Shown here: piece after piece, positions 55,086 through 64,000 of the stretch
Layout of the letters: each line of letters starts with the position of its first letter
Numbering within the stretch: position 1 is the stretch's first letter
NCBI RefSeq assembly: GCF_015245355.1
Contig: NZ_CP063311.1
Coordinates: 3,200,469 to 3,264,468, forward strand
Length of the DNA: 64,000 nucleotides
Reading direction: 5' to 3'
From: Anabaenopsis elenkinii CCIBt3563
GTDB taxonomy: Bacteria > Cyanobacteriota > Cyanobacteriia > Cyanobacteriales > Nostocaceae
Translations under genes and position numbers: made by a program
The notes under the pieces: model-generated
Database searches by the model: none
What the model was told of the DNA's origin: nothing
The model's input: the letters and a program-made list of their open reading frames with translations, nothing else

Positions 55086-55484
55086 CTAGATAAACAATGC
55101 TGGAGAAACATTAAAAAATTCTCCTAAAGCTTTGGCTTGACCTTTACTAATTGCTCTTTTACCATTGACAACTTCGCAAACAACTCCTTTCGAGCCAATA
55201 ATTCCTACTAAGTCAGATTGTTTAATTCCCTGAACATCCATTAAGTGCTTCAGAATTGCACAAGGGGACGATGCTTCAATGGGATACTCCTTGTTTTCAA
55301 ATTCTTCAATAAGAGTCACTAAAAGCTCTAGTATAGCAGTTTGCTCTGGTGTACGTTGTTTACAGGCCATTAATTGCTCAACTGTTTTTAAAGCGCGATC
55401 GCATTCTTTTTCTGTGGTGATAACTTGAGGTTGATACTCTAGTAGAAGTTGACTGTAAGTGATTCTGTTAAAAGAATTCGTCAT
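55086..55484 (-). CDS. higA: HigA-type antitoxin (XRE helix-turn-helix)
   Basis: A protein of 132 residues. The C-terminal half is a helix-turn-helix: CAILKHLMDVQGIKQSDLVG, then IIGSKGVVCEVVNGKRAISK and the ALGEFFNVSPALFI tail, as in HigA of the Anabaena type. The N-terminal 60 residues form the toxin-interacting part. The start has AGGAA upstream. It follows higB on the same strand after an unusually long 159-bp gap that contains a direct repeat. It should neutralise HigB and repress the operon. Confidence 0.9.
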   Translation of the reverse strand: MTNSFNRITYSQLLLEYQPQVITTEKECDRALKTVEQLMACKQRTPEQTAILELLVTLIEEFENKEYPIEASSPCAILKHLMDVQGIKQSDLVGIIGSKGVVCEVVNGKRAISKGQAKALGEFFNVSPALFI

Positions 55485-55489
55485 ATTCC

Positions 55490-55553
55490 TTTTCGCCCGT
55501 TTGGCGGCGACCCAACATTAGGAGGATTTTCGCCCGTTATCGGCGGCGACCCG
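55490..55553. repeat. Two copies of a GC-rich 24-26-bp repeat in the higB-higA gap
   Basis: TTTTCGCCCGTTTGGCGGCG+ACCC at 55490-55513 and TTTTCGCCCGTTATCGGCGG+CGACCC at 55527-55552, 37 bases apart. They lie in the 5' leader of higA. They could be a mobile repeat or an operator. Confidence 0.75.
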
Positions 55554-55643
55554 TATCATGGCTTACTTCAATCCACAAAAGTAAGTATGAAAGTTAACAG
55601 TTATCAATTGAATATTATATTATATAATAATTATATCTAGTTC

Positions 55644-55943
55644 TCAAAACAAAGGGTCATTTTTCCATTTATCTTTATTATATTCAGCGTGGGTTAAAAA
55701 ATATTTGTAATAAACTGTTTGAATTTCATAATCAATACTCACAATGAGGCGATAGGTATTACCTTTAATATTGAATACTGTAAAATTGCTGACTACATCT
55801 GCTGTGGGGTAAACTTGTCTAACTTCATTTAACTTGTGCCATGATGCAGATTTCACAACTTGATACCAAGAGTTAATAGGTTCTACTGCATCTGGGTATT
55901 TACTAGTATCAGCTCGTAAGTTGCGAATGCTGATTAGGTGCAT
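55644..55943 (-). CDS. higB: HigB-type mRNA interferase toxin
   Basis: A protein of 99 residues of the RelE/HigB superfamily: MHLISIRNLRADTSKYPDAV, WYQVVKSASWHKLNEVRQVYPTADVV, VFNIKGNTYRLIVSIDY and VYYKYFLTHAEYNKDKWK. The last block with the YNKDKWK motif is the catalytic end of HigB toxins, which cut mRNA on the ribosome. It is the first gene of the higBA module and is divergent from ileS. Confidence 0.93.
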   Translation of the reverse strand: MHLISIRNLRADTSKYPDAVEPINSWYQVVKSASWHKLNEVRQVYPTADVVSNFTVFNIKGNTYRLIVSIDYEIQTVYYKYFLTHAEYNKDKWKNDPLF

Positions 55944-59040: not shown

Positions 59041-59925
59041 TTATAACTTCTGTAATAATTCCTGAGTCAATTGATTAAATGCTTTGGAACCTGATGACTG
59101 AGGCGCATTTAAAACTACAGGTTGAAAACTATCCACAGCTTTGGCGACATTCATATCAACTGGTATTTGGGCTTTACAAATTTGTTCTACACCAAAGTCT
59201 TCAATGACGCGGTGCATTACTTGTCGATAATATCTAGCATTGAGAAGATTAGAACTCGCCATTGTAAAGACAATTCCTAGCATTTTGATATTTATTTTCG
59301 CCTCTTGTGCGTGACTGTCTTTTAATTGACCGATGCGTCTTTCTAATAGCTGGATACCAACCACAGATAAGGGTTCCGGTTTAGCGGGGAGAATGTAAAA
59401 GTCACTCGCAGCTAAAGCACTCCGGGTTAATAAATTATAGCCCGGCGCACAATCTAAAAGGATGAAATCATACTCCTCACGCACTGGTTTTAAAATATTA
59501 TTGATCAGGACTCTTTCAAAGCGATTCCATACAGTTTCAAAATCTTGTTCACCTAAAGCTGTTGCTTGTTGGTGCAGCATTTCCGATACAACAAACTCAT
59601 CATATAAGTCAATATCTCCGGGTAATAAATCTAGTCCAGGAAGATTACAAACCTGAGCTTGGATAATATCATGAATTGTCAGTTTTGCTTCTGGTTCAGG
59701 ATTGATAATTTGGTCTATTAAATATCGAAATGTTTTGCGGTGTTTGCGAAGTTTAGCAAAGTCTAAAGGAGACATCATGCTCAGTGTAGCACTGATTTGG
59801 CTGTCTAAATCTAAGACCAGTACCCGCTTACGGTGATTTTGAGCCAAACAGGTGGCGATGTTGACTGTAAGGGTGGTTTTACCTACGCCGCCTTTCATAT
59901 TTGCAGTAGCTATAATGTATCCCAT
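59041..59925 (-). CDS. ParA/Soj-family ATPase
   Basis: A protein of 294 residues from the ATG at 59925, which has AGAGGA upstream; a 19-residue extension to 59982 lacks one. The deviant Walker A is IIATANMKGGVGKTTLTVNI at the start. RVLVLDLDSQISATLSM and YDFILLDCAPGYNLLTRSAL are Walker A' and B. Family members polymerise on DNA with ATP and move plasmids, chromosomes or protein machines. No parB or centromere-like site is adjacent. It is the last gene of a minus-strand set with the RNase D-nuclease-FtsK fusion 105 bp upstream, so it may position that machine. Confidence 0.9.
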   Translation of the reverse strand: MGYIIATANMKGGVGKTTLTVNIATCLAQNHRKRVLVLDLDSQISATLSMMSPLDFAKLRKHRKTFRYLIDQIINPEPEAKLTIHDIIQAQVCNLPGLDLLPGDIDLYDEFVVSEMLHQQATALGEQDFETVWNRFERVLINNILKPVREEYDFILLDCAPGYNLLTRSALAASDFYILPAKPEPLSVVGIQLLERRIGQLKDSHAQEAKINIKMLGIVFTMASSNLLNARYYRQVMHRVIEDFGVEQICKAQIPVDMNVAKAVDSFQPVVLNAPQSSGSKAFNQLTQELLQKL

Positions 59926-60030
59926 TGGTAAATTCCTCTGATGATGCGTTCCCGTATTTAGGTAGGGTACACTGTTACTCAATAATTAAAACTTGTATAA
60001 AGTTAATATTTTTGGCATATTTTTGGGAAC

Positions 60031-62730
60031 TTATTTTACAGCTGCAAATCTGGGTATGTGAATCTTTTGAGCATACAAGCTCTGTAGTCGCTGGATTTTT
60101 GCCCCTATCTGGTAAAGTAAATCACCTTTACCCAACAGGTAAGCAGCGGATGTTTCTGTACCTCCCAAGACAATTTTTGAGTCACCTTCGCTAGCAGTTC
60201 GTAGGGCGATTCTTCCCGGTAAGTTAGAACGGATAATGGGGGTAACAATACCCGCTTCTGGGCGTTGTGTGGCTATAATTAGATGTATACCTGCGGCTCT
60301 AGCCATTGCTCCCAAACGTTTTATACTGAATTCTAATACTTTACGGACTGCTTTTTCTGCCATAAAGTCGGCATATTCATCAAAGATGCAGACAATAGGG
60401 GGTAAAGGTTGAGGAGAATTTTGATTATAGGTGATCACATCAGGACATCTGGCGTTCTCCAATTTGTGGTAACGAGATTCCATTTCTGTAACTAATTCTT
60501 CCATGAGTTCTACAGCGCGATCGCTGTCTTTGACCACGGGTGAATATAACCAGGGGATCTGCTCAAATTCTGGGAATGTGACTCTTTTGGGGTCAACTAG
60601 TGCAATTTTCAGATGTTGGGGAGAATGATGATATAGTAGACTCAGGAGAAGCGATCGCAAAAACTCACTTTTACCGCTCCCAGTAGTACCACCTACCAAA
60701 AAGTGACAAGTATTCGCATCGGATAAATCAGCCTCTATCAAATCTCCATCTATACTCACCCCCATAGCGATTTTTATCGGTGCTGTGGGTGGTAAAAATT
60801 GCTGTTGAATATATGTTTCAAATCTAGCAACTTGACGCTGTGGACGTGGTAAATCAATGCTGATATAACCAGCTTGGGGAGCAATCAAAGGCGGTCGTTC
60901 TAAACCCAAGTGTACTTGTAAATCTGCCGATAATCTCATAATGGCATTGACTTTTACACCCAAATCAGGTTTAAGCTTCACCCTGATAAAAGCTGGCCCA
61001 ATAGCAGACCCCTGGTACTCAACAGGTACTTTAAAAGATTGCAGAGTGTTAACTAAATCTTCCCCAATAGCATCAGCATTTACAGACTCTCCTCTATTAT
61101 TTTCCCAAGTATGATCTTCAGTAACTTGATTGTCCCTGTTTTCAGGAGCTACAGTCAAAAAAGTCCCACTATTTTCCCAAGTATGATCTTCAGTAACTTG
61201 ATTGTCCCTGTTTTCAGGAGCTACAGTCAAAAAAGTCCCACTATTTTCCCAAGTATGATCTTGAGTAACTTGATTGTCCCTGTTTTCAGGAGCTACAGTA
61301 AAAAAAGTCCCACACTTTTGCTGCTGGGGGCAAATTTCACACAAATGAACCTGAGTTGTTACAGGTGGCCCATCGGGTTGGGGTGGTTCCCAACTCAACC
61401 ATTGCTGCATCTGTAATAATTTGTAGGGAATCAGTTGATGTATTGTACTTTCTAGCTGTTCCCAAGAATATTGATATTCTTTAAACTCCGGTAAAACACA
61501 ATAAACCGATGCATCCACAGCCACCTTTTTAGTTTGCCATAGCATATAACTATAAAGTGAAACCTGGGCTAATTGCGCCGATGGGTCTACAGGCTGATAG
61601 GTTTTAAATTCTACCACACACAAACGTTTTTTAGCCAAGTTAAAAACTAAGCAATCAAATTCCCCCCTCACCCGTTGCTGTCTGCCATCAGGTAAAGTAA
61701 AGTAATGCTCAAGGCTGGATTCTCCAGATATGAAAGTCTGACTAATTAAACTTTCTGCATCGCAATAACTACGATTAGTGATTAACAACTGTGCAAAGCG
61801 TTTAATCAGTCCCTGTAAGCCCTCCCAAACTTTTAATAAAATTACTACTGTATCAGGGGATTTTTGGATTACTCTTTCTAAGTATGGGTAAAATATTAAT
61901 TTATAAAATATTCCTTGCATTTGAGAGGAAACTTCCTCTATATTCAAACTTTCCGCCTCCGCTTGGAATAAAGTCTGAAATTCAGGTTCTACTAAAGCTA
62001 GTTTGATCAACTCATCTGCTAATTGATGAAAGTGGTTACCAATACCCCTAGGAGTATCAGCGGGTAAAAATATTGCTGAGTCGCCAAATTTATGATTTAA
62101 ATAAAAAAGCCGCGGACATTCAAAAGCGATTCTCACCTTAGTAGGATTTAAGGAGGGGTGAGAAGGTCTTTCTCTTACCGGTTCTGAAATATTATTTTCC
62201 ATATCTAGTAAACTCCGATGTACAGCAGCCAAATAAACTGTATCCATAGCTGCATATTGTAATTGCTTTTGGCTCAGGGGACGTGTTCGCCAGTTGCTTG
62301 CTCCTGATTCCGCATCTACATTGATAAAGTGACAAAGTTCTGATGCTAAGGTTTTGAGTTTTAAATTAGAAACTTGCAAACGTTCACGGGTAATTTTTCT
62401 GGCTATTTTTAGGGTACAGGTAACATTAGTTGCTAGTTCTCCGCCTAAATACTTTAGGTCAAAACTAGCATTGTGAAAAACCTTTTCAATACTAGAATTA
62501 ACCATGATTTTATTAATAAACTCTGTGGCTAAATGATCTTGATCTAATACATCCAGAATATAAGCAGATACCCCTGTTAAATCTCTAGAGTCAGCTAACA
62601 CCTGAATTAGGGATAATCGGGGATTTTCAGTGTACCAATCTGCAATTTCTGTATCTACCCATAGGACTTTTGCAGATGCTAATTCAGATATTACGTATTT
62701 AATTTCGCCTGGATCTGTGAGGTACTGCAT
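60031..62730 (-). CDS. RNase D-like exonuclease + Fe-S PD-(D/E)XK nuclease + FtsK/HerA-like ATPase fusion
   Basis: A protein of 899 residues with three catalytic modules. Residues 1-175: DEDDy exonuclease, with Asp26/Glu28 (WVDTEIADW), Asp91 (HNASFDLKYL) and Tyr159/Asp163 (QYAAMDTVYL). Residues 200-475: RecB/Cas4-type nuclease, with Asp359 (RGEFDCLVF), Glu374/Lys376 (VVEFKTYQ), the QLAQVSLYSYML motif, and an Fe-S cluster by Cys205 plus Cys464/467/473 (CEICPQQQKC). Residues 570-899: FtsK/SpoIIIE motor, with Walker A GGTTGSGKS (680-688), Walker B IVCIFDEYADF and LIIATQRPEAG. Three 24-residue repeats lie between nuclease and motor. It follows an unrecognised gene by five bases and precedes ParA. 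It looks like a DNA-translocating nuclease; the biological role is unknown. Confidence 0.9.
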   Translation of the reverse strand: MQYLTDPGEIKYVISELASAKVLWVDTEIADWYTENPRLSLIQVLADSRDLTGVSAYILDVLDQDHLATEFINKIMVNSSIEKVFHNASFDLKYLGGELATNVTCTLKIARKITRERLQVSNLKLKTLASELCHFINVDAESGASNWRTRPLSQKQLQYAAMDTVYLAAVHRSLLDMENNISEPVRERPSHPSLNPTKVRIAFECPRLFYLNHKFGDSAIFLPADTPRGIGNHFHQLADELIKLALVEPEFQTLFQAEAESLNIEEVSSQMQGIFYKLIFYPYLERVIQKSPDTVVILLKVWEGLQGLIKRFAQLLITNRSYCDAESLISQTFISGESSLEHYFTLPDGRQQRVRGEFDCLVFNLAKKRLCVVEFKTYQPVDPSAQLAQVSLYSYMLWQTKKVAVDASVYCVLPEFKEYQYSWEQLESTIHQLIPYKLLQMQQWLSWEPPQPDGPPVTTQVHLCEICPQQQKCGTFFTVAPENRDNQVTQDHTWENSGTFLTVAPENRDNQVTEDHTWENSGTFLTVAPENRDNQVTEDHTWENNRGESVNADAIGEDLVNTLQSFKVPVEYQGSAIGPAFIRVKLKPDLGVKVNAIMRLSADLQVHLGLERPPLIAPQAGYISIDLPRPQRQVARFETYIQQQFLPPTAPIKIAMGVSIDGDLIEADLSDANTCHFLVGGTTGSGKSEFLRSLLLSLLYHHSPQHLKIALVDPKRVTFPEFEQIPWLYSPVVKDSDRAVELMEELVTEMESRYHKLENARCPDVITYNQNSPQPLPPIVCIFDEYADFMAEKAVRKVLEFSIKRLGAMARAAGIHLIIATQRPEAGIVTPIIRSNLPGRIALRTASEGDSKIVLGGTETSAAYLLGKGDLLYQIGAKIQRLQSLYAQKIHIPRFAAVK
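61099..61314 (-). repeat. 72-bp tandem repeat, three copies, in the nuclease-motor linker
   Basis: Copies begin at 61099, 61171 and 61243 (ATTTTCCCAAGTATGATCTT...). They are nearly identical and encode 24 residues each, GTFLTVAPENRD then NQVTEDHTWENS. The unit starts at the residues just after the last Fe-S cysteine, so the linker grew by duplicating itself. Confidence 0.92.
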
Positions 62731-62735
62731 TAACT

Positions 62736-63980
62736 TTAATTAAGTAAACAAATCAATTGTTTTTTCACTTCATCATGGGGGTTAACAATTTTTACTTTCT
62801 TTTCCTGACATAATAAATCAATTAATAGGTGGGTTTCAGTTTCTTTGACATTGGGAAACTGACTTGCTGCTTGGGAAATTAGGATAGGGACACCCATCAA
62901 ACCCTGGGTTGTGATGACATTGAATAAAAACTCTTTGATAGGCCTTAAATCTTGTTTAGCATTTCTATTAAAGTTGCTATCATCATTAGGTTGAGGGTTG
63001 GTAATAATCCCTAAATCTTGTAGTAAAACACATTTCTGCAAGACTTTACACTCACGGATAAAGCTTTGTAATGTCTGTAAATTAATGTTTTTATTTCCAA
63101 TAAATAATTCTTGGGAAAGTGCAGAATTAACTAAGGAATGGTAAGTAGCTAAGTAGTGCACTGATTGAAGAGTCGGTTTAATGTGAATATGTTGAGTACT
63201 GTTAAAAATCTGGCTATAGGTTTGATAGCATTTGAGTTGTGGTTTTCCTACATTACTAATTCTAATTAGGACAAGTTTTTGACATAGATTTTGCTGAACT
63301 GCTTTATGACAGGCGTTCATTACATGGAAGAAATTCATCATGTTAGAATCTTCTGTCCATACAACACCTATTTTTTCTCTACTACCACGATGTTGATAAC
63401 TCAAGGAATAGCTCGCATATTTACCTGCAATCATTTTAGATTTTACGGACTGCAATTGTAATGCTTCTAATGCTTCTTGTAGCATCCGCACTAACTCAGG
63501 AGATGACAATAAGGAAATTTTACTCAATTTTCCTTGATACTTTTTATATTCTTGTTGCCATAATAATTGAAATTCTGCCCGATCTTTCTCCTCAGAATCG
63601 AAGCTCCCAGAAAAATCATTCTTTCTGACTTTAAAATTTATGGGCTGTTTTTGTGGCTGTTGTAGTAAGTCAATTAAGATAGTTTGTCCAATATTCAAAA
63701 GGGAAACTTTATATTTTTGGTACTCTGACCTTCCCAACATTAACGCATTTCTGGGATTAGTTTTACCGCCGGGGAAATTTTTCTCTAATAATTGAATATT
63801 TAAGGGAAAAATAGGTGATTCCGGCTTGGGTTGAGCTTGTTGATATATTGTTTGTAACTGATAGTACCACAGTGCTTCCGCTTGTTTGAGGTCAATCTGT
63901 TTTAGGAATATTTCTCTATCGATTCTCGCTTGGTCAGATTGGGGAATATGATCCCGCGTTTGCCTCCAAGGATCTAACAC
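62736..63980 (-). CDS. Unrecognised protein, first visible gene of the nuclease-motor operon
   Basis: 414 residues from a GTG at 63980, but the frame stays open to the window edge, so the true start may lie outside. The N terminus is polar and helical (DHIPQSDQARIDREIFLKQI). Parts of the middle alternate beta and alpha (EKIGVVWTEDSNMMNFFHVM, KLVLIRISNVGKPQ), and the C terminus resembles a small winged helix (ILISQAASQFPNVKETETHL then LIDLLCQEKKVKIV). No P-loop, nuclease or helicase motif is seen. Five bases separate its stop from the start of the fusion gene, so the two are almost certainly translated together. It may be a DNA-binding or adaptor subunit. Confidence 0.75.
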   Translation of the reverse strand: MLDPWRQTRDHIPQSDQARIDREIFLKQIDLKQAEALWYYQLQTIYQQAQPKPESPIFPLNIQLLEKNFPGGKTNPRNALMLGRSEYQKYKVSLLNIGQTILIDLLQQPQKQPINFKVRKNDFSGSFDSEEKDRAEFQLLWQQEYKKYQGKLSKISLLSSPELVRMLQEALEALQLQSVKSKMIAGKYASYSLSYQHRGSREKIGVVWTEDSNMMNFFHVMNACHKAVQQNLCQKLVLIRISNVGKPQLKCYQTYSQIFNSTQHIHIKPTLQSVHYLATYHSLVNSALSQELFIGNKNINLQTLQSFIRECKVLQKCVLLQDLGIITNPQPNDDSNFNRNAKQDLRPIKEFLFNVITTQGLMGVPILISQAASQFPNVKETETHLLIDLLCQEKKVKIVNPHDEVKKQLICLLN

Positions 63981-64000
63981 TAAGGTAATTATTATGAGAA

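What the first reader, a model, noticed from the sequence alone, without database searches (positions are those of the whole stretch)
59041..63980. Operon of an unknown protein, a triple nuclease/motor fusion and ParA
Seen: one 899-residue protein carries the complete catalytic residues of an RNase D-like exonuclease, a RecB/Cas4-like Fe-S nuclease and an FtsK/HerA-type motor, translated with a 414-residue unknown and followed by a ParA ATPase. Known: HerA/FtsK motors with nucleases process DNA ends or act in defence, and ParA proteins position large complexes. Inference: a membrane- or DNA-positioned machine that degrades or imports DNA, either repair, natural transformation or anti-invader defence. 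I know of no described system with this architecture.
Basis: partly seen in the sequence, partly recalled or inferred. Interest (0 to 1): 0.85.

Follow-up and report, generated by a model that had tools for sequence, protein, structure and literature searches.

The report
Three-gene cyanobacterial DNA motor–nuclease system
Many filamentous cyanobacteria carry a three-gene machine that probably recognises, pumps and cuts foreign DNA, and its likely recognition gene is repeatedly swapped between strains while the cutting motor stays the same, which fits a restriction-like defence.

Summary
The fusion is real: one 899-aa protein with a DEDDy 3'-5' exonuclease, a four-cysteine PD-(D/E)XK nuclease and an FtsK alpha+beta motor; catalytic residues are kept almost throughout 82 proteins. 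Two details fail. The '414-aa unknown' is part of a 697-aa gene cut by the window edge, whose N-terminus is an Orc/Cdc6/TnsC-like AAA+ ATPase. ParA is a common neighbour, not a part. The conserved unit is a winged-helix protein (F2, outside the window), the AAA+ protein (F1) and the fusion (F0): F1 is directly upstream of F0 in 78 of 79 loci, F2 comes next in 73 of 73. It is accessory: intact in 19 of 40 genomes. The architecture was predicted in 2024 as an Orc/Cdc6 'HerA/FtsK capture' counter-invader system (PMC10853773), so 'no described system' is wrong. New here: F1, often with the last ~45 residues of F2, is exchanged between close relatives inside a fixed F2/F0 frame (e.g. F0 95%, F1 49%; F1 trees reject monophyly in 5 of 5 groups tested). 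I read it as a restriction-like defence with a swappable recognition ATPase. The function is inferred.

The parts
60031..62730 (-). F0: 899-aa fusion, DEDDy exonuclease + four-Cys PD-(D/E)XK nuclease + FtsK alpha/beta motor
62203..62727 (-). F0 residues 2-176: DEDDy (RNase D/NrnC-like) 3'-5' exonuclease; absent in short forms (Pseudanabaena plasmid L003, L111, L112)
61312..62151 (-). F0 residues 194-473: PD-(D/E)XK (RecB/AddB/Cas4-type) nuclease with four invariant cysteines (C205, C464, C467, C473)
61098..61313 (-). 72-bp x 3.0 tandem repeat in the hypervariable linker between nuclease and motor
60847..61089 (-). F0 residues 548-628: FtsK alpha domain
60259..60789 (-). F0 residues 648-824: FtsK/SpoIIIE motor (beta) domain; no gamma or membrane domain hit
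62736..64000 (-). F1: residues ~278-697 of a 697-aa Orc/Cdc6-like AAA+ protein (whole gene window-equivalent 62736-64829). The part in the window holds the last part of the AAA+ region, the predicted alpha-beta-beta-beta-alpha-beta domain and the C-terminal winged-helix region
59041..59925 (-). ParA-family ATPase from its likely start (residue 20 of the listed frame). Neighbour only, judged NOT part of the system

Best explanation
F2-F1-F0 is a cyanobacterial branch of the Orc/Cdc6-'HerA/FtsK capture' counter-invader systems and works like an ATP-driven restriction machine. Shown by sequence or by predicted structure: F2 has several winged helices; F1 is an Orc/Cdc6/TnsC-type AAA+ with an intact Walker A and DNA-binding-type domains at its C-terminus; F0 is an FtsK motor without a membrane-domain hit, fused to two nucleases with intact active sites. 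The three genes form an accessory unit, and F1 alleles are exchanged between strains in an otherwise largely vertically inherited frame. Inferred: F1 (a ring or filament on DNA, with F2 as adaptor) recognises an invader DNA feature or a replication/transfer intermediate and loads F0. F0 pumps the DNA, the four-cysteine nuclease makes the first cuts, and the DEDDy exonuclease trims 3' ends. F1 is swapped because it sets specificity, as HsdS does in type I restriction (recalled).
For: Domains and active sites. Operon order in 78 of 79 and 73 of 73 loci. F1 fold: Z 14.2, 249 residues, rmsd 4.0 to yeast ORC1; Z 12.9 to TnsC; Z 13.4 to the ATPase RdrA. F2 winged helices. Accessory: intact fusion in 19 of 40 genomes; decayed in G015; split into two loci with all three genes kept in G014, and split in G002 with F0 lacking the exonuclease; on a conjugative plasmid in Pseudanabaena. 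F1 exchange: 9 of 13 groups with F0 >=85% identical hold two or more F1 alleles <75% identical; 30 of 60 such pairs have F1 <75%, against 8 of 60 for F2; DNA identity steps near the end of F2 and near the F1/F0 border; the F1 tree (42 of 66 loci) rejects the F0-defined clade in 5 of 5 groups tested (p-AU 6e-72 to 6e-4), whereas F0 has 4 of those 5 as clades (support 100) and does not reject the fifth (p 0.32), and F2 rejects none. The same class was predicted independently as counter-invader (PMC10853773).
Against: No experiment. Flanking genes are not enriched in PADLOC families over arbitrary regions (39 against 77 families, a coarse count). F0/F1/F2 distances follow IleRS distances (r 0.79-0.84 in 15-16 loci), so inheritance is fairly vertical for a defence system. 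No relative in the viral-contig scan with F1. F1 occurs without F0 at E <= 1e-80 in G102 and G256. F1's Walker B has Q or N after the acidic residue in 44 of 44 rows, so ATP hydrolysis is uncertain. F2 also varies (8 of 60 pairs <75%), and in some pairs, such as L035-L110, the step at F1 is weak, so part of the F1 divergence may be fast change rather than exchange. The groups for the tree tests were chosen after pairwise identities were seen. Phage or plasmid targets are unknown. The REase-like fold of F1's middle domain rests on predicted topology only.
Confidence: 0.66

Rival explanations
1. A DNA-end-processing or genome-maintenance machine of polyploid filamentous cyanobacteria: F1/F2 mark breaks or replication intermediates and F0 resects them, as AddAB or HerA-NurA do (recalled).
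For: RecB/AddB-type nuclease with four cysteines plus 3'-5' exonuclease plus dsDNA motor; near-vertical inheritance; no defence-island signal; F0 is the only place in the window's genome that matches the F0 motor at E <= 0.001.
Against: Intact fusion in only 19 of 40 genomes, with one decayed copy; on a conjugative plasmid; repeated exchange of F1 alleles is not expected of a repair ATPase.
Confidence: 0.17
2. A relic or part of a mobile element (TnsC/Orc-like ATPase with motor), domesticated for mobility rather than defence.
For: F1 resembles TnsC; the 2024 paper calls related neighbourhoods mobile (PMC10853773); tandem F2-F1 copies in G031, G032 and L112.
Against: The site beside ParA and IleRS recurs in many Nostocales; the commonest shared neighbour families that I identified are ParA, IleRS and glycosyltransferases. 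The other shared families were not annotated, so a linked transposase was not excluded.
Confidence: 0.08
3. One reading: a ParA-positioned machine for DNA uptake or export (transformation or transfer).
For: ParA is the next gene downstream in 24 of 80 loci.
Against: ParA is in 37 of 40 genomes with or without the system and was not found at E <= 1e-40 in G014 and G031, which keep F0; 29 of 80 loci have no ParA within the >4 kb available downstream; no membrane-domain hit in F0.
Confidence: 0.03

Closest known systems
Orc/Cdc6-coupled 'HerA/FtsK capture' systems (Rakesh, Aravind, Krishnan 2024, PMC10853773; sections 22 and 26 read, other passages by search)
   Same: Orc/Cdc6 AAA+ with a middle domain before a C-terminal wHTH; separate multi-wHTH protein; active REase; FtsKalpha-type HerA/FtsK; in some a 3'->5' exonuclease fused to the motor.
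   Different: Here all of these sit in a fixed three-gene order in cyanobacteria, largely vertical rather than mobile, with F1 allele exchange in a fixed frame, which the sections read do not mention. The main text has no word beginning 'cyanobacteri'; its supplements were not open to me.
SspFGH (phosphorothioate-linked, PMC8092258, passages read)
   Same: Three genes, one with Walker A, one ending in an FtsK-like motor; a PADLOC SspH model matches F0 over residues 510-878 (E 2.8e-66).
   Different: Only the motor region matches; no SspF or SspG hit for F1/F2 (I did not check that those models are in the library). F0, F1 and F2 occur without a DndC-model hit in G014.
DndFGH
   Same: Three-gene logic: multi-wHTH protein, NTPase, HerA/FtsK with REase (as described in PMC10853773).
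   Different: No PADLOC DndF, DndG or DndH hit for F0, F1 or F2; different sizes and domain order.
FtsK/SpoIIIE chromosome translocases
   Same: FtsK alpha and beta domains; best solved relative FtsK 2iuu (E 3.1e-63).
   Different: No membrane or gamma domain hit; fused to nucleases; accessory.
Type I restriction (recalled, not tested)
   Same: Works like it by inference: translocating nuclease with a swappable recognition part.
   Different: No homology was tested; no methylase gene in the three-gene unit.

Membership tests
Orc/Cdc6 HerA/FtsK capture system | Orc/Cdc6-clade AAA+ ATPase | tested here: met
   By fold: ORC1 Z 14.2 (249 aligned, rmsd 4.0), archaeal Cdc6/Orc 13.0, TnsC 12.9; the nine Foldseek matches with E <= 0.001 are all ORC/Cdc6 chains. 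By sequence only AAA_16/AAA_22/KAP and a weak orc1/cdc6 hit
Orc/Cdc6 HerA/FtsK capture system | Inactive REase domain between AAA+ and C-terminal wHTH | tested here: inconclusive
   Model shows alpha-beta-beta-beta-alpha-beta at 443-522 before a helical/winged C-terminus; no D..(D/E)xK pattern conserved in residues 458-499, the only stretch tabulated; the domain alone was not folded or searched
Orc/Cdc6 HerA/FtsK capture system | HerA/FtsK motor, one class with FtsKalpha | tested here: met
   FtsK_alpha E 8.3e-10, FtsK_SpoIIIE 1.5e-41
Orc/Cdc6 HerA/FtsK capture system | Active REase | tested here: met
   PDDEXK_1 with conserved catalytic residues (activity itself not tested); which of the paper's two REase families it is was not tested
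[quoted passage not shown]
   pLDDT 88, winged-helix matches on residues 47-144 and 178-273 (generic, Z up to 8.8); relation to DndG itself not tested
Orc/Cdc6 HerA/FtsK capture system | 3'->5' exonuclease fused to the motor (in some) | tested here: met
Orc/Cdc6 HerA/FtsK capture system | Mobile gene neighbourhood | tested here: inconclusive
   Near-vertical in 15-16 loci, one conjugative plasmid copy, split loci
SspFGH | Paired with phosphorothioate modification genes | tested here: inconclusive
   DndC-model hit in 37 of 40 genomes, with or without the system; G014 has F0, F1 and F2 but no hit. Only the DndC model was used, which might miss SspD-type genes
SspFGH | SspF and SspG homologues | tested here: inconclusive
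   No SspF/SspG hit in PADLOC up to E 1 for F1/F2 of own genome and L003; presence of those models in the library not checked
DndFGH | DndF, DndG, DndH homologues | tested here: inconclusive
   No such PADLOC hit; presence of those models not checked, remote homology not excluded
FtsK/SpoIIIE translocase | Membrane and gamma (KOPS-reading) domains | tested here: not met
   No Pfam hit for them in F0 at E <= 0.1
Anti-invader defence (function) | Lowers phage or plasmid success in vivo | not testable with these tools
   Needs experiment

The most novel reading that the evidence does not exclude
A defence machine in which the Orc/Cdc6-like ATPase, not a DNA-methylase or TRD subunit, is the exchangeable specificity part. 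F1, often with the last ~45 residues of F2, forms a cassette swapped by recombination between strains into a constant F2/motor-nuclease frame, with extra F2-F1 or F1 copies (G031, G032, L088, L112) as possible allele reservoirs.
Probability: 0.5. Interest if true: 0.75.

Novelty: new member of a known kind. Interest (0 to 1): 0.55.

Why it matters
It gives a concrete, widespread and conserved system for a class known to me only as an in-silico prediction, with one polypeptide carrying a pump and two DNA nucleases. It also points to the AAA+ subunit as the part under exchange, which makes 'what does the Orc-like ATPase recognise?' directly testable by allele swap. Cyanobacterial hosts matter for bloom phages and for transformability of filamentous strains.

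Tried and rejected
ParA as a subunit: rejected. Phosphorothioate dependence: not supported, since a DndC-model gene is in 37 of 40 genomes and was not found in G014, which has all three genes; an SspD-type gene could be missed by that model. Defence island: PADLOC at 1e-20 on 102 of 102 flanking ORFs >=200 aa from 13 operon regions (43 operon-type ORFs dropped) against 101 of 141 ORFs from 9 of 13 arbitrarily chosen regions in seven of the same genomes matched 39 against 77 families. That shows no enrichment, but the test is coarse: the tool counts families, and single proteins (a PbeC-like one in the control) match many models. An earlier count said 11 control regions; 9 is right.

Viral contigs with the F1 alignment: 36 stretches matched a pattern, none a relative. 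Phages with F0: 172 records, none covering 80% of the query; the 10 rows shown match the motor only, best in Cylindrospermopsis phages, 38% over residues 544-891. Plasmids with F1: two records, one full relative. The solved-structure search with the F1 profile gave only weak P-loop hits, and with F2 weak winged-helix hits among others. ParA distances mixed paralogues (r 0.14-0.25 against F0-F2) and were set aside; the ParA values quoted are.

Literature: the searches were seen as listings (capped); in them I saw no paper on this operon except PMC10853773. The eLife paper PMC7159879 was listed but not read (one search failed and was not repeated). PMC12839542 and PMC8092258 were seen as passages. 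'Not tested experimentally' rests on these listings alone.

Full report
WHAT IS THERE. The window's right end holds the end of a minus-strand operon. F0 (60031-62730, 899 aa) has a DEDDy exonuclease, a PD-(D/E)XK nuclease, FtsK alpha and the FtsK motor. Over 82 proteins (own included) the catalytic residues are conserved: four cysteines, H235/D359/K376/Q389/Y393 and both Walker motifs in 82 of 82, E374 in 77 (Asp in 5), and the exonuclease residues in 76-79 of 82, the rest gaps except one protein at D26 and one at E28. Solved relatives are FtsK (2iuu, E 3.1e-63) and NrnC/RNase D/Rrp6-type exonucleases. The four cysteines suggest an AddB/Cas4-like 4Fe-4S cluster; that label is recalled knowledge plus the pattern, not a test.

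THE 'UNKNOWN' AND THE MISSING GENE. In the window the upstream frame is open at its 5' end. Complete homologues are mostly 650-740 aa, and the genome shows 697 aa. Upstream of it lies a 272-aa gene (window-equivalent 64876-65694). AlphaFold models, with the Nodularia relative L033 as first row, gave F1 mean pLDDT 85.5 and F2 88.1. F1's N-terminus matches ORC1 (Z 14.2), RdrA (13.4), archaeal Cdc6/Orc (13.0) and TnsC (12.9). F2 matches winged-helix proteins (Z up to 8.8, generic). F1 keeps Walker A (G67, G72 and K73 in 44 of 44 rows) but has Q (27) or N (17) after the Walker B acidic residue, so it should bind ATP but may hydrolyse it poorly.

THE UNIT. In 79 F0 genes with an upstream gene in the locus, F1 is immediately upstream in 78 (the miss is L102); of 73 with a further gene, F2 is next in 73. 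These loci were found through F0, so genomes with separated parts (below) are under-represented. ParA is the next gene downstream in 24 of 80 loci, further downstream in 18, absent from the >4 kb available in 29, and 9 give no information. ParA is in 37 of 40 genomes. In three of four inspected genomes without the operon (L149, L150, L151; L148 differs) the site between glycosyltransferase genes and ParA/IleRS holds another pair of genes. So ParA is a neighbour.

DISTRIBUTION. Among 40 genomes (own and 39 relatives) the fusion is intact by my reading of the match list in 19; G029 has a rearranged form, G002 lacks the exonuclease part, G015 has fragments, and 18 have none. F1 at E below 1e-100 is in 46 of 386 genomes sampled from the phylum, all of them in the window's family or order, plus the G015 remnant (my count). 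In the order, 101 of 291 genomes have an F0-type match at E <= 1e-80, and 62 show the whole three-domain chain in one match (my count). Outside it I saw a conjugative plasmid of Pseudanabaena PCC 7367 (no exonuclease domain) and contigs named Leptolyngbyaceae or Pseudanabaenaceae. In G014, F2-F1 and F0 sit about 0.95 Mb apart, all with full-length frames; in G002 they are also apart. G102 and G256 have F1 without F0 at the threshold used.

F1 IS EXCHANGED. Of 66 named loci with all three genes in the size range, 60 pairs have F0 >=85% identical; in 30 of them F1 is <75% identical, F2 in 8. Single-linkage groups at F0 >=85%: 9 of 13 hold two or more F1 alleles. Examples (F0/F1/F2/ParA): Brasilonema L045-L079 95/49/87/96; Dolichospermum L040-L109 96/54/83/97; Nostoc L041-L055 97/63/90/97. 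In eight divergent pairs DNA identity falls near the end of F2 to roughly 45-75% and rises again at the start of F0, or already within the last part of F1; the step is sharp in most and weak in L035-L110, and the control pair L057-L107 has none there. On the protein scale the fall is at F2 residue ~225 in several pairs, and the return at F1 ~476 (L079-L097), ~626-651 (L041-L055, L040-L109) or not before F0 (L045-L079, L076-L077). L070-L071 is reversed: similar N-terminus, diverged rest, no fall in F2. Five control pairs stay mostly above ~75%, with dips in linkers and near the C-terminus. In the F1 tree of 42 loci, L045 groups with L040 of another family (SH-aLRT 98). Holding the F0-defined groups together is rejected in 5 of 5 tested (p-AU 4e-43, 6e-72, 4e-33, 6e-4, 3e-5). 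F0 has 4 of these as clades at 100 and does not reject the fifth (p 0.32); F2 rejects none. The groups were picked after seeing pairwise identities, which the AU test does not allow for. Extra F1 copies within one genome are 40-57% identical to each other.

MECHANISM. Shown by sequence, predicted structure and comparison: components, conservation, exchange. Inferred: F1 (with F2) selects and loads; F0 pumps and cuts. A recognition role of F1 is the simplest reason for repeated exchange, by analogy with HsdS (recalled). Why the last ~45 residues of F2 often travel with F1 is best explained by a physical contact; this is inference.

COMPARED WITH THE KNOWN. Rakesh, Aravind and Krishnan (PMC10853773; sections 22 and 26 read in full, other passages by search) describe operons with an Orc/Cdc6 ATPase, inactive REase, wHTH, active REase, HerA/FtsK (one set with FtsKalpha), in a subset a 2-4 wHTH gene, in others a fused 3'->5' exonuclease, and propose a counter-invader role. 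This locus fits, so it is a member of a known, predicted kind. SspFGH (PMC8092258, passages) is similar in outline, but only the motor region matches. The BREX paper PMC12839542 (passages) refers to the same theme.

LIMITS. No function was tested. The inactive-REase fold of F1 rests on topology. The flank test is coarse. The genome scan kept only the best 80 of 143 loci and started from one query, so distant bacterial members could be missed.

Noticed in passing
L143:4065-8203 (window's own genome, G000:C1 182064-186202): A second, distant F2-F1 pair (223 and 649 aa) followed by a 488-aa DUF1802 + Mrr-like (weak, E 0.009) gene; the same order of related genes in 10 of 19 loci examined. It resembles the Orc/Cdc6 + ASCH-REase + triple-wHTH operons of PMC10853773.
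   Followed up: partly
L142:6247-16699 (own genome): DndE, DndD, DndC and PbeC/PbeA-like genes together; a DndC-model hit in 37 of 40 genomes.
   Followed up: partly
L149:4563-6646, L150:5463-7558, L151:5511-7603: At the site that holds the operon in relatives lies a pair: a ParA with an N-terminal region weakly like HSDR_N nucleases (E 4e-4, L149 only scanned) and a ParB_N + HHH protein.
   Followed up: partly
61098-61313: 72-bp x 3 nearly perfect tandem repeat (98% matches) coding three 24-aa units in the F0 linker; the linker is hypervariable in relatives.
   Followed up: no
F1, L033 residues 247-248: Walker B of F1 reads D-Q or D-N in place of D-E (43 Asp, 1 Glu at 247; 27 Q and 17 N at 248; 44 rows).
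   Followed up: no
55086-55943: HigB-type toxin gene (Pfam E 8e-31) with a downstream 132-aa gene, probably its antitoxin (inference), beside IleRS.
   Followed up: no
L112, L181 (G031), L171 (G032), L167 (G148): Tandem F2-F1-F1 copies before a full operon, or F2-F1(-F1) without F0 nearby.
   Followed up: partly
G468, G472, G523, G573: Frames of 493-505 aa that match exonuclease and nuclease only, no motor in the same frame, so F0's parts can separate.
   Followed up: no
MH636380.1, OQ625504.1: Cylindrospermopsis phages carry an FtsK-like protein about 38% identical to the F0 motor.
   Followed up: no
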